In this document: one piece after another, positions 4,532 to 39,162 of the stretch
Position numbering within the stretch: position 1 is the first letter of the stretch
How the letters are laid out: the number at the start of each line of letters is the position of its first letter
Program-made: the position numbers and the translations under genes
The notes under the pieces: model-generated
Told to the model about the DNA's origin: nothing
The model's input: only the letters and a program-made list of their open reading frames with translations
The model's database searches: none
Virus record (IMG/VR): IMGVR_UViG_3300037245_001585
Coordinates: 1 to 41,353 of that record
Length of the DNA: 41,353 nt
Direction: 5' to 3' (one strand)
Source: a virus

Positions 4532-4795
4532 ATGGTATGTTCAAATAATTATCCAAAAGATATAGGCGAATGCCAACACAATTTAGGCATGGCAACGGGT
4601 ATGAGCATTGAAAAAGGAGAAGGAAATAGCGGGAACACAATAGAGGTCGGCGACACCTTTACTCTTGAGATGAAAAACAGAGATTGTATTATGGAAATAA
4701 AAGGAGTAAGAAGCGATGAAAAAACAATCTTTATCAAAATAGGCAACAGTCAGGAGTTTGGATTTCCGAAAGACCTTTTTAAATTTAATCAATGA
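4532..4795 (+). CDS. Hypothetical protein (87 aa)
   Basis: A short protein with an N-terminal cysteine pair (VCSNNYPKDIGEC) and a beta-rich C-terminal half (TLEMKNRDCIMEIKGVRS) that could form a small SH3-like barrel. No family is recognised. The stop overlaps the zinc-ribbon gene start. Confidence 0.5.
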   Translation: MVCSNNYPKDIGECQHNLGMATGMSIEKGEGNSGNTIEVGDTFTLEMKNRDCIMEIKGVRSDEKTIFIKIGNSQEFGFPKDLFKFNQ

Positions 4796-4890
4796 ATCGT
4801 TGTAAAAACTGCGGAGAAGAAACAAAGCCCGGATATGACTATTGTAGTCGAGGATGTGAGAATGAATATAATTCTAAATTGAAGATATGA
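4792..4890 (+). CDS. Zinc-ribbon peptide (32 aa)
   Basis: The peptide is almost entirely one metal site: CKNCGEE near the N-terminus (C4, C7) and CSRGCEN later (C18, C22), the spacing of a treble-clef or ribbon zinc finger. Both ends overlap neighbours by ATGA, so it is embedded in a coupled operon ahead of the terminase genes. It may bind nucleic acid or a partner protein; the role is unknown. Confidence 0.55.
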   Translation: MNRCKNCGEETKPGYDYCSRGCENEYNSKLKI

Positions 4891-29549: not shown

Positions 29550-29574
29550 CTTAGTAAAGTGATATTCCTCTCAC

Positions 29575-29603
29575 GCCTCTCAATGAAGCGCACCCGGAGA
29601 GGC
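29575..29603 (+). other. Hairpin upstream of the late terminator
   Basis: GCCTCTC and GAGAGGC pair over 7 bases around a 15-base loop, followed by a short T-rich stretch (CTTTC). It may be a first weak terminator before the stronger one at 29632. Confidence 0.45.
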
Positions 29604-29631
29604 TTTCAAAAACGTATTAATTATTATTAAG

Positions 29632-29662
29632 AAGCCCGGAGCGTCAAGTTCCGGGCTTTTTA
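29632..29662 (+). terminator. Strong terminator between convergent late and accessory genes
   Basis: AAGCCCGGA and TTCCGGGCTTTTT form a long G/C-rich stem with a T-tract. It ends the late operon. The opposite strand also shows a stem followed by CTTCTTAAT, so it may work in both directions for the minus-strand gene that converges on it. Confidence 0.85.
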
Positions 29663-29723
29663 ATGCTGAAGCGTAAATAGATATCTCCTTTCTATAGTTT
29701 AATGCAAGGGAATATCTCGCTTC

Positions 29724-32977: not shown

Positions 32978-33008
32978 TTTGATTATTAGATTATCATTTC
33001 TATCTTTG
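32978..33008 (+). promoter_or_regulatory. Bacteroidetes-type promoter of a small RNA
   Basis: TTTG (32978-32981), 19 bases, and TATCTTTG (33001-33008) match the -33 and -7 consensus exactly. Transcription should begin near 33013-33015. There is no open reading frame directly downstream. Confidence 0.7.
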
Positions 33009-33013
33009 TAATA

Positions 33014-33130
33014 GAGATGGTAAAATTTAATAACATAACTAAGGATAAGAGAACCTACAAGGTAGGCTTCAGATATTATCATCTCTATAAAATGCCCTTT
33101 CGAGTTTTTGAACTTGACTGGGCATTTTTA
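33014..33130 (+). ncRNA. Probable free-standing small RNA (about 115 nt)
   Basis: Between a perfect promoter and a strong terminator lies a stretch with no gene. It folds from a long closing stem in which GAGATGGTAA (33014-33023) pairs with TTATCATCTC (33076-33085); the pairing would extend 3 bases further outward in the DNA. It encloses a smaller hairpin, CCTAC/GTAGG with loop AAG, near 33055-33067. The terminator stem follows directly. This is the layout of a stable small RNA or of a riboswitch with terminator, but the next gene is 300 bases away. I do not recognise the family. Confidence 0.65.
33090..33129 (+). terminator. Intrinsic terminator of the small RNA
   Basis: AAATGCCC (33090-33097) pairs with GGGCATTT (33120-33127), and inside it CGAGTT pairs with AACTTG around a TTTG loop. 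The T-tract TTTTT at the 3' side ends it. Both stems stack into one hairpin. Confidence 0.8.
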
Positions 33131-33426
33131 TGTTCTGATAAATCTGTTATTTTCGGCTAAATTACCTTGTGTAATAGAGTAGGAACAAAAAAGGCTTTCT
33201 TCAAGACTCATGGAAAGTGAAGCAAGTACAAAGTGGATGCTTAGAGAAGGGCTATAACCTATCACGTGAAGTGTAGCGAAAAACCACTAAATTGATAATC
33301 GTTAATAGGCTGTATTATCATGCTCGATGAATGACTCCGATCCTTATTGGATGATTTTATGAGTTTACTTTTTTCTGACTAAGGGGAAAGTATGCTCAAA
33401 TCTTAACCCCTTAACCTTCTGGATGA
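33131..33426 (+). other. Non-coding folded leader before the nuclease gene
   Basis: There is no gene in 296 bases. TACCTTGTGTAATAGAG (from 33163) partly repeats the promoter and start of the small RNA (TATCTTTGTAATAGAG). Hairpins are seen at TGATAAT/ATTATCA (33293-33299 with 33314-33320), ATCC/GGAT (around 33340-33352) and TAAGGGG/CCCCTTA (33380-33413). The pattern suggests a second structured RNA or a long leader. Core motifs of group I or II introns were not found. Confidence 0.45.
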
Positions 33427-33852
33427 ATGAAACACAAACAAAAAGAACACCAACAAAGGATCATAAACCACCGAATTAATAAGAATAAAGCGAAAAGAAA
33501 TGCAACAAAATTAAAACGTGGAATTACAAGAGCCGAAAGGATTGTAAAAAATATCTTAGATGAAGATGGAATAATTTACGATTTTCAAAAACCTTTTCAC
33601 TCTCATAACTGTTGCTATATTGTTGATTTCTATTTTGAAAATACTATTGGTCGAAAATATGTAATTGAATTGGATGGGAAAACACACAACCGATTCACGA
33701 AAATATATAATAAAAACCGTTCATTTTTCCTATATCACAAAATGGAGTGTGCTGTTATTCGATTTGAAAATGAAGATGTATTTAATGATATCGATAAAGT
33801 TATGGAGAAAATCTATAGCTTTAACCCTCGATGTATTGATGATAATTTTTAA
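33427..33852 (+). CDS. DUF559/Vsr-like nuclease, possible free-standing homing-type endonuclease
   Basis: The 141-residue protein has a very basic N-terminus (1-35) and then the DUF559 fold: RAERIVKNILDEDG with E37, YIVDFYF with D67, YVIELDGKTH with E81, D83 and H87 (79-87), RSFFLYHK and AVIRFENED. These residues form a PD-(D/E)XK-like metal site, as in Vsr and related endonucleases. Members occur as free-standing or intron-borne homing nucleases and as repair enzymes. The 300-base structured leader and the adjacent small RNA make a mobile cassette plausible. Confidence 0.7.
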   Translation: MKHKQKEHQQRIINHRINKNKAKRNATKLKRGITRAERIVKNILDEDGIIYDFQKPFHSHNCCYIVDFYFENTIGRKYVIELDGKTHNRFTKIYNKNRSFFLYHKMECAVIRFENEDVFNDIDKVMEKIYSFNPRCIDDNF

Positions 33853-34966: not shown

Positions 34967-35893
34967 TTAAAACAATATAGGCATACATATTTTAATCTGA
35001 ACAAAAACAAAATGTTGCAATGTCTTATAGTTAATAATTGGGTTTTTATGTTCCTTCACAAAATTCCAACTCTCTTCTTTTACGATATCATAATAGACGG
35101 AATTTAGAAGCCTTGGAATATCTTTACTGTAAAAACCATTGTTAGCATTCTCAATATTAGATTTAACCTTTTCGCATAGAGAGGTGGTTGTATATTTCTT
35201 TGCTATCTCCTCTTCTATCATCTTTTTGCCTTCAATTTTTGGCGCACCCATCACTTTTGAATGTCGCTCTTTAAATTCAGATGTTACAATCTTAGCCCAC
35301 GTTTGGCGACCATATGTATTAAAAAAATCATAGTTTTTTAATACAATCCCTTCTCCTGCCCCTTTGCCATCCTGAATAAGAAATACATTTTTATCTAATT
35401 GCTTAATAAACTGCTCGTAGTTGGCTCTATCTATAATTGCTATTGGGGGTATATATTCTATATCAAAACGCTCTAATATTGGCTTATAGTAAAGGTAATG
35501 TAGGTATTTCATGCTATCCGATCCCTCGTGTTCCATTTCGCTTGCGGTTTTATCTATAGCGACATCAAAAACATAAAACTTTTTCCACGCATCATCTTTG
35601 TAGGTTTTTAAACTATGAGGCACAAGCCATTCGCCAAACAATCTGCATTCTGGAAATTCGTTTAAAAAGTCGAGTATGTTTTTTTGACCGATAACCCAAT
35701 CATTAAACCCTGCATTATCAGAATTTAATGATAAGTGTCTTTTCCGACTGCCCGCCTGTACTGTTCCATTATCAATCCAGACACTCGCATTTGTACCGTC
35801 AATTTTAGGGAAAATATAACATTCGCCTAATTCAATATTCTGAACTTCGGTTGTTCCAAATCTTTCAATATGCTGATATTTTTTAAATTCCAT
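34967..35893 (-). CDS. RNA ligase (Rnl2-like nucleotidyltransferase)
   Basis: From MEFKKYQHIE, all ligase motifs appear in order: I, KIDGTN with K30 as the AMP-binding lysine; III, RLFGEWL (84-90); IIIa, FYVFDVA (106-112); IV, EGIVLKN (181-187); V, WAKIV (199-203). RNA ligases of this family seal nicks in RNA, for example tRNA broken by host anti-phage nucleases. No polynucleotide kinase gene is seen in the window. I choose the ATG at 35893 because upstream codons lack support. The gene begins with the shared A+T-rich leader. Confidence 0.88.
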   Translation of the reverse strand: MEFKKYQHIERFGTTEVQNIELGECYIFPKIDGTNASVWIDNGTVQAGSRKRHLSLNSDNAGFNDWVIGQKNILDFLNEFPECRLFGEWLVPHSLKTYKDDAWKKFYVFDVAIDKTASEMEHEGSDSMKYLHYLYYKPILERFDIEYIPPIAIIDRANYEQFIKQLDKNVFLIQDGKGAGEGIVLKNYDFFNTYGRQTWAKIVTSEFKERHSKVMGAPKIEGKKMIEEEIAKKYTTTSLCEKVKSNIENANNGFYSKDIPRLLNSVYYDIVKEESWNFVKEHKNPIINYKTLQHFVFVQIKICMPILF

Positions 35894-35911
35894 AATATAT
35901 AATTTAAAGTT
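35891..35911 (-). repeat. Shared start leader, copy C
   Basis: On the coding strand AACTTTAAATTATATATTAT leads into the start codon of the RNA ligase. A TTTG lies 17 bases before the TAACTTTA of this leader, so it may also be the -7 of a promoter. Confidence 0.4.
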
Positions 35912-36075
35912 AAAACCACAACCTAGCAACAAACGACCAAAAAGCAACAACAAAGGCAACTCCTGTGAGTATTAAGCAAAGAGCTAACCATTGAATGATG
36001 TTTGGGCTTTGGGTTAATCTTGCCTCGCTTTACGCTGGCTTTATAGTTTCTTTTTGTTATTTTGGATAGTTTCAT
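35908..36075 (-). pseudogene. Small membrane protein with possible frameshift
   Basis: From the ATG at 36075 the sequence reads MKLSKITKRNYKASVKRGKI, then loses a sensible composition (CLCCCFLVVCC). In the +1 frame a clean membrane helix appears (WLALCLILTGVAFVVAFWSF), ending ARLWF. A basic N-terminus plus helix would be a normal small phage membrane protein, so one base may be missing or extra near 35990-36010. Confidence 0.35.
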
Positions 36076-38519: not shown

Positions 38520-38609
38520 TTAAAAAATTACATCTTCGTCCGGGTATGGTTTTAAATCGTATAGTATCTTTTCTTCTTCTGTTAAATAATCTTTTGGCTC
38601 ATAATTCAT
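38520..38609 (-). CDS. Small acidic peptide (29 aa)
   Basis: MNYEPKDYLTEEEKILYDLK and then PYPDEDVIF, coupled to the NinG-like gene whose stop it overlaps. The role is unknown, but it is well supported by overlap and by the next gene following at once. Confidence 0.45.
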   Translation of the reverse strand: MNYEPKDYLTEEEKILYDLKPYPDEDVIF

Positions 38610-39162
38610 TCTCTAATCTGTTTATTTCGTTTAACATTTCTTTTAGTAAAAATTCACGTTCAAAAACATAGTAATGTGATGTTAACTGAGCCTGAAGCCT
38701 TAGTTCGGTCATAAACTCCATCCCTTTATATTTTAATAACCAATCAGAGAACTCAAAACTCGTCTTGTGCGCTGAGAAATTAACACCTATATGATGTCCG
38801 ACACATAAACAAATACCATTTCTAGTATCCCATCTAACCGACATTTTCGCCCTTGAGTAAATATGATGTGAGTTGAGAGATTTTGTTTTACCGCAATACT
38901 CGCATTTATTCCCGGCTTTTAGCTTTATAAGTTTAGACCACGCATCATCTAGTTTCTTATTTAATTTCTTCTTCGTATTGGCTCGTTTAGGCTTCGTATC
39001 TGCAACCTTTGTGTTATTCGGCTGCAATGGCTTCTTTTTACTCTGTTCGTGTAATTTTCGGCACGTTTTGCACCTTCTCGACTTTATTATCCCTGTTTTG
39101 TAATCCCGGATAGGGACAAAGTCGCATTTACAGTTTATACATTTGATATTATCTACTTTCAT
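38599..39162 (-). CDS. NinG/Rap-like recombination endonuclease (HNH)
   Basis: The N-terminal zinc ribbon (C8-C11 and C31-C34) is followed by a lysine-rich linker and a NinG-type HNH core: KCEYCGKTKSLNSHHIYSRA with C87, C90, H99 and H100. WDTRNGICLC and VGHHIGVNFSAH follow. NinG (Rap) cuts Holliday junctions and branched DNA in lambdoid phage recombination. The layout and length (187 residues) fit the family. Neighbouring genes include a NinB-like one, as in other phages. Confidence 0.8.
   Translation of the reverse strand: MKVDNIKCINCKCDFVPIRDYKTGIIKSRRCKTCRKLHEQSKKKPLQPNNTKVADTKPKRANTKKKLNKKLDDAWSKLIKLKAGNKCEYCGKTKSLNSHHIYSRAKMSVRWDTRNGICLCVGHHIGVNFSAHKTSFEFSDWLLKYKGMEFMTELRLQAQLTSHYYVFEREFLLKEMLNEINRLENEL

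What the first reader, a model, noticed from the sequence alone, without database searches (positions are those of the whole stretch)
33131..33852. DUF559-type nuclease behind a 300-base folded leader next to the small RNA
The nuclease gene is preceded by 296 non-coding bases with several hairpins and a second copy of the promoter-start motif (TACCTTGTGTAATAGAG against TATCTTTGTAATAGAG). Free-standing nucleases with upstream RNA can be mobile elements or RNA-guided systems. No known intron core is visible, so the unit may be a new RNA-nuclease cassette.
Basis: partly seen in the sequence, partly recalled or inferred. Interest (0 to 1): 0.7.

Follow-up and report, generated by a model that had tools for sequence, protein, structure and literature searches.

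The report
Phage RNA–nuclease cassette with swappable nuclease
A small phage DNA-cutting enzyme sits behind non-coding RNA; related phages carry the same kind of RNA module in front of a quite different cutting enzyme, so the RNA and the nuclease appear to travel as one selfish unit whose working is not yet known.

Summary
The ORF (33427-33852) is a 141-aa DUF559 nuclease; its closest solved structure is homing endonuclease I-Bth0305I. It lies behind 451 non-coding bases, the longest such gap in the window. The 'second promoter motif' is chance, and the leader as a whole folds no better than shuffles. One leader hairpin (33360-33398, 16 bp) is real. The nuclease's only close relative found (L002, 72%, an otherwise unrelated phage) has the same layout: small RNA with terminator, about 290-nt leader, long hairpin, nuclease.

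That hairpin led to three more cassettes, one in contig G399 and two in phage OP947161, whose nuclease is HNH, not DUF559. The leader (L002, L031, L052) and a pseudoknotted small RNA (L002, L031, L052, L053) are conserved with compensatory changes; all flanking genes differ. Rfam has no family for it at gathering score.

So a recurrent phage RNA-nuclease cassette with interchangeable nuclease is supported. The window's membership rests on its nuclease, layout, hairpin and a weak leader-model match; its small RNA does not fit the shared fold. Most likely this is a free-standing homing-endonuclease cassette with RNA control of the nuclease; RNA guidance is unsupported.

The parts
32978..33008 (+). 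Bacteroidota-type promoter TTTG-N19-TATCTTTG of the small RNA
   Evidence: pattern counts in the window are not above chance, so it rests on position before a folded RNA
33009..33128 (+). Small RNA: closing stem 33011-33088 and terminator hairpin 33089-33128 followed by U-rich tail
   Evidence: MFE -40, z -5.7, 0 of 200 shuffles. Pseudoknot topology of the relatives not found
33131..33426 (+). Non-coding leader of the nuclease gene
   Evidence: No ORF on the + strand, no Rfam match, whole-leader z -0.87; leader model R1 matches 33285-33444, E 0.0076 per 601 nt, E 0.52 over the whole window
33293..33320 (+). Stem PA (33293-33299 with 33314-33320), equivalent to stems in L031, L052, L002
   Evidence: Pairs changed on both sides across four loci
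33360..33398 (+). Long leader hairpin, 5 bp outer stem, 1x1 mismatch, 11 bp inner stem
   Evidence: 16 bp; 7 of 3000 shuffles; same place and architecture in L002, L031 and, by reading the sequence, L052
33427..33852 (+). DUF559 (Vsr/EDxHD-like) nuclease, 141 aa, basic N-terminal helix

Best explanation
The unit is a free-standing homing-endonuclease-type mobile cassette of Bacteroidota-type phages: promoter, small structured RNA with terminator, about 290-nt structured leader, small basic nuclease. The nuclease domain has been exchanged (DUF559/Vsr-like in the window and L002, HNH in L031, L052, L053) while the RNA part was kept. The nuclease most likely cuts cassette-free phage DNA so that repair copies the cassette in. 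The RNA part most likely keeps nuclease synthesis low or correctly timed: the terminator limits read-through and the leader hairpin holds back translation. Shown: nuclease fold and purifying selection; same layout at five loci; RNA conservation with compensatory changes across nuclease types; unrelated flanks; two copies in one phage. Inferred: cleavage, homing and the RNA's regulatory role.
For: Homing-type nuclease by PHROGs, PADLOC, PDB sequence and fold. DUF559 pair dN 0.19 against saturated dS. Leader of L031 and L052 76.8% identical over 273 nt, E 5e-43; L002 to L031 71% over 152 nt, E 1e-9. Small-RNA topology with near-constant spacings in four loci, covariation 2/500; model from HNH-type RNAs finds the DUF559-type L002 RNA, E 0.0082 per 501 nt. 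Long hairpins in both DUF559 leaders. Flanks unrelated; two units in OP947161. T4 precedent for hairpin-controlled free-standing homing nucleases (PMC2988022).
Against: No cassette-free site was found, so insertion is not shown. T4-type cassettes do not carry a separate pseudoknotted RNA. The window hairpin ends 28 nt before the start codon and does not cover it. The window's small RNA lacks the shared fold.
Confidence: 0.5

Rival explanations
1. The RNA binds the nuclease protein. Either the pseudoknotted small RNA is an inhibitor, as in type III toxin-antitoxin systems (promoter, RNA, terminator, nuclease), or it is a scaffold or guide for the cut.
For: RNA conserved while the nuclease domain is replaced. 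Pseudoknot and terminator order resembles type III toxin-antitoxin layout (own knowledge). Nuclease N-termini are very basic in W, L002, L031 and L053: 16-24 K+R in the first 60 residues.
Against: HNH and DUF559 are DNA-nuclease folds, not ToxN. No tandem repeats. Basic tail absent in L052, which keeps only the HNH domain. No guide segment recognised. No binding data.
Confidence: 0.2
2. The RNA is a phage gene of its own with an unrelated role, and different homing nucleases have settled next to it because they target or tolerate that site (as T4 segB sits among tRNA genes).
For: Two unrelated nuclease types behind the same RNA. T4 segB precedent (PMC2988022).
Against: In about 430 kb of fetched phage sequence the RNA models hit only in front of nucleases. 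Both copies in OP947161 have a nuclease. Flanks differ at every locus.
Confidence: 0.17
3. The window is not a member: an ordinary free-standing homing endonuclease gene that lies by chance behind an unrelated small RNA and an ordinary untranslated leader.
For: Window small RNA does not match model R2. The leader match is only E 0.52 over the whole window. No similarity between the window and L002 leaders by plain alignment or by the own fold-and-align test.
Against: The nuclease is 72% identical to that of L002, a firm member. Same gap length and layout. Long hairpin at the same place. Model match in register in the expected region. PA stem with pairs changed on both sides.
Confidence: 0.2
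4. The leader is a divergent self-splicing intron core or its remnant carrying a homing endonuclease.
For: A structured RNA better conserved than the nuclease behind it, with exchangeable nucleases, is how group I introns behave. EDxHD nucleases are known from group I and II introns (PMC3943268, PMC12350094).
Against: No Rfam intron match at relaxed threshold. Flanking genes look complete; no split host gene. A terminator and own promoter lie inside the unit.
Confidence: 0.06

Closest known systems
EDxHD homing endonuclease I-Bth0305I (PDB 3r3p) and the EDxHD/Vsr-like phage homing nucleases
   Same: Nuclease fold: best PDB match by sequence (E 3e-5) and by fold (E 5e-4)
   Different: Only 141 aa, no NUMOD or other DNA-binding domain found, not inside an intron; RNA module upstream
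Free-standing homing endonucleases of T4-like phages (segB, mobE, seg43(25)) with leader hairpins
   Same: Intergenic nuclease gene with a stable hairpin before the start codon (PMC2988022)
   Different: Separate promoter-terminator small RNA with a conserved pseudoknot; RNA conserved across two nuclease folds; different hosts
Type III toxin-antitoxin systems (ToxIN and relatives)
   Same: Order promoter, pseudoknotted RNA, terminator, nuclease (own knowledge of ToxIN)
   Different: No tandem RNA repeats, no ToxN-type ribonuclease, an extra structured leader of about 290 nt
HEARO RNA / IscB (OMEGA)
   Same: Structured RNA beside an HNH-containing nuclease gene in a mobile setting
   Different: No RuvC domain, proteins of only 105-143 aa, no Rfam HEARO match, no guide segment recognised
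Rfam RF02932 Betaproteobacteria-1 RNA
   Same: The leader of one HNH unit (L053 2216-2308) matches it at 27.2 bits, E 0.0019
   Different: Below the 49.4-bit gathering score; the other leaders, the window's included, do not match

Membership tests
DUF559 / Vsr-like nuclease domain | Sequence match above the curated cut-off | tested here: met
   51.8 bits against a cut-off of 20.6
DUF559 / Vsr-like nuclease domain | Conserved acidic and histidine active-site residues | tested here: met
   E37, D67, E81, D83 and H87 invariant in 14 DUF559 proteins
EDxHD homing endonuclease | Catalytic domain related to I-Bth0305I | tested here: met
EDxHD homing endonuclease | Extra DNA-binding (NUMOD-type) region | tested here: not met
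   Pfam finds only DUF559; model shows one N-terminal helix and the nuclease domain
EDxHD homing endonuclease | Cleavage of the matching empty site | not testable with these tools
   Needs purified protein; no empty site found
Homing-endonuclease cassette | Presence in unrelated genomes or sites without shared flanks | tested here: met
   Five loci, four phages, unrelated flanking proteins
Group I or II intron | Intron core detectable by covariance model | tested here: not met
Group I or II intron | Interrupted host gene | tested here: inconclusive
   Neighbouring ORFs look complete on reading; no empty site available
Type III toxin-antitoxin | Tandem-repeat antitoxin RNA | tested here: not met
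   No tandem copies in the small RNA region
Type III toxin-antitoxin | ToxN-type endoribonuclease | tested here: not met
   DUF559 and HNH only
OMEGA / IscB | HEARO RNA and a RuvC/IscB protein | tested here: not met
   No Rfam match; proteins match only DUF559 or HNH
RNA module of L002/L031/L052 (leader) | Match to leader model R1 | tested here: inconclusive
   Window 33285-33444: E 0.0076 per 601 nt, E 0.52 over 41 kb
RNA module of L002/L031/L052/L053 (small RNA) | P1-P2-pseudoknot topology | tested here: not met
   Window small RNA: none found

The most novel reading that the evidence does not exclude
A new class of mobile RNA-nuclease system in phages: a pseudoknotted small RNA and a structured leader act on, or together with, whichever small nuclease is plugged in (DUF559 or HNH), for example as an RNA inhibitor, chaperone or guide of the nuclease.
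Probability: 0.15. Interest if true: 0.9.

Novelty: new variant of a known kind. Interest (0 to 1): 0.62.

Why it matters
Known phage homing nucleases are controlled by short hairpins or hide in introns. Here an RNA module without an Rfam family at gathering score is conserved while the nuclease domain behind it is replaced by an unrelated one. That makes the RNA, not the enzyme, the constant part of the unit. Two covariance models and five loci now allow a direct test: do nucleases of either kind need this RNA, and does it ever occur without one?

Tried and rejected
(1) Second promoter copy: the 10-mer repeat is below chance. (2) Whole-leader folding: z -0.87; the own two-sequence fold-and-align test of window against L002 is no better than shuffles for leader or small RNA, so only local features are claimed for the window. 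(3) Group I/II intron, HEARO and other Rfam families: no match in the unit at gathering score and none convincing at relaxed thresholds except the RF02932 lead in L053. (4) Small peptide in place of the small RNA: short ORFs overlap it at each locus, but the conserved stretch of L052 and L053 is read in different frames, judged by eye from the sequences. (5) Small RNA-leader antisense pairing: 21/500 and 128/500 shuffles do as well. (6) Further relatives of the DUF559 protein: INPHARED none, plasmids one weak hit, about 790 Bacteroidota genome searches gave only 32-43% chromosomal DUF559. (7) RNA models against Bacteroidota genomes: no hit in 395 each. (8) An A-rich match in L037/L038 was chance on reading the sequence. 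(9) Empty insertion site: G400 shares the RNA ligase gene but not the neighbourhood. (10) Literature searches for a described phage RNA with an HNH or DUF559 nuclease gave nothing in the held library, which misses most subscription papers.

Full report
WHAT WAS CHECKED. The ORF 33427-33852 (+, 141 aa) matches Pfam DUF559 at 8e-14. It also matches PHROG 'intron encoded nuclease' and 'homing endonuclease' and a PADLOC homing-endonuclease model. Its best PDB relative by sequence is 3r3p, the catalytic domain of the mobile-intron enzyme I-Bth0305I, E 3e-5. An AlphaFold model (pLDDT 84) puts the same chain first by fold. Upstream lie 451 non-coding bases, the longest gap in the window. These hold a small RNA with promoter TTTG-N19-TATCTTTG and a terminator (33009-33128, z -5.7), then the 296-base leader.

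WHAT DID NOT HOLD. The repeated 'promoter-start' string is a 10-mer; dinucleotide shuffles of the region give 2.5 such repeats against 1 seen. The leader as a whole is not unusually folded (z -0.87). Rfam finds nothing convincing in it even at relaxed thresholds.

THE CLOSE RELATIVE. Only one close homologue of the nuclease was found in IMG/VR: contig IMGVR_UViG_3300043172_000590 (locus L002), 72% identical, under strong purifying selection outside the N-terminus. The two phages share little else. Yet L002 has the same layout: about 470 non-coding bases, a small RNA with terminator, a leader of about 285 bases, then the gene. Plain alignment of the two upstream regions is not significant, nor is a simultaneous fold-and-align test. 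One feature stands out in both: a long hairpin near the start codon. The window has 16 bp (33360-33398; 7 of 3000 shuffles). L002 has 19 bp (2907-2949; 0 of 3000 shuffles). Both have an outer stem of 5-6 bp, a 1x1 mismatch, then a UAC...GUA inner stem of pyrimidines against purines. The L002 hairpin is followed by a T-run and could act as a terminator; the window's is not.

THE SWAP. Scanning the fetched phage contigs for such hairpins turned up a 20-bp one, similar in sequence to that of L002, in G399, a contig related to the window phage by its portal gene (L031 7315-7360). Reading that place showed promoter, small RNA with terminator, a leader of about 318 bases, the hairpin, and then a 126-aa HNH nuclease (Pfam HNH), not DUF559. 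Its leader matches L002 (71% over 152 nt, E 1e-9). In the INPHARED collection it matches phage OP947161 (76.8% over 273 nt, E 5e-43), again directly before an HNH gene (L052). OP947161 carries a second such unit 16 kb away (L053), with a related small RNA (74%) and HNH protein but a different leader. Flanking genes of all five units are unrelated to each other. Modules are mixed: L031 and L052 share the leader, L052 and L053 have the closest small RNAs, and the long N-terminal tail is shared by the L031 and L053 nucleases. Between L031 and L052 the leader is 75-77% identical, against 66% for the nuclease DNA.

THE RNA. In L002, L031, L052 and L053 the small RNA has one topology: hairpin P1; helix P2; and a pseudoknot between the P1 loop and the bases just 3' of P2. 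Sequences differ, but spacings are 7-9, 45-51, 4-5 and 0-1 nt. Each alone is reached by 1-7 of 300 shuffles. On the three-sequence alignment the covariation is reached by 2 of 500 shuffles, and sliding the partners destroys it (the structure was read from these sequences, so this leans in its favour). A model built only from the HNH-type RNAs finds the L002 small RNA in register, E 0.0082 per 501 nt, and best in its 6.4 kb (E 0.11). In the leader, stem PA covaries across four loci including the window.

HOW FIRMLY THE WINDOW BELONGS. The leader model built without the window picks 33285-33444, end to end and in register, as its best match in the region (13.7 bits, E 0.0076). Over the whole window it ranks third, E 0.52, and default filters miss it. 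The small-RNA model finds nothing in the window, and the pseudoknot topology is absent. Membership therefore rests on the shared nuclease (72% with a firm member), the layout, the hairpin and the in-register leader match. I put it at about 0.8.

MECHANISM. Best supported: a free-standing homing-endonuclease-type mobile unit with RNA control of its nuclease. T4 offers the precedent: hairpins regulate I-TevI, segB and mobE, and a very stable hairpin of unknown effect sits upstream of seg43(25) in Aeromonas phage 25 (PMC2988022). EDxHD/Vsr-type nucleases form a large, partly unrecognised group in phages (PMC12350094). The separate pseudoknotted RNA, and the fact that the RNA stays while the nuclease changes, go beyond that precedent. 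They leave open that the RNA acts on the nuclease protein itself. No test here bears on cleavage, homing or RNA binding.

LIMITS. The family stands on five loci in four phages. Two covariance-model searches of 395 Bacteroidota genomes each were empty, which for phage elements says little. L053's leader resembles Rfam RF02932 (27 bits, below the 49-bit gathering score, E 0.0019), an unexplained lead. The hairpin and the topology were found by looking, so their shuffle counts are not corrected for that search; the sequence matches and the model matches are the independent checks.

Noticed in passing
window 29567-29603 (+) and 29621-29669: The only Rfam match of the window: abiF RNA, 38.5 bits against a gathering score of 37, just before a 21-bp hairpin with a T-run that looks like a terminator.
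   Followed up: no
L053 2216-2308 (phage OP947161, record about 4749-4841): The leader of the second HNH unit matches Rfam RF02932 Betaproteobacteria-1 RNA at E 0.0019, below gathering score; possibly another RNA type in front of the same nuclease family.
   Followed up: partly
L038 6506-8743: The terminase-like ORF of a relative phage contains what looks like an intein (GNTSISTINGD ... VANTHEYLANGVLVHNC) by reading the translation.
   Followed up: no
L052, L053 (OP947161): The record is labelled Rhodobacteraceae phage, but its cassettes use TATCTTTG-type promoters and match Bacteroidota-type phage contigs; the host label may be wrong.
   Followed up: no
window 33315-33334 and 33411-33430: A direct repeat (80%) reaches over the start codon. 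In the other loci a short sequence before the long hairpin also recurs just before the start codon, with a core that differs between phages but matches within each (read by eye).
   Followed up: no
window 34967-35959 (-) and 38599-39162 (-): An RNA-ligase gene (Pfam RNA_ligase) and a NinG/Rap-like HNH endonuclease gene lie near the cassette on the opposite strand.
   Followed up: no
G061 contig C114 35437-36336 (loci L021, L007): Two DUF559 matches lie in tandem about 250 nt apart in one Bacteroidia genome.
   Followed up: no
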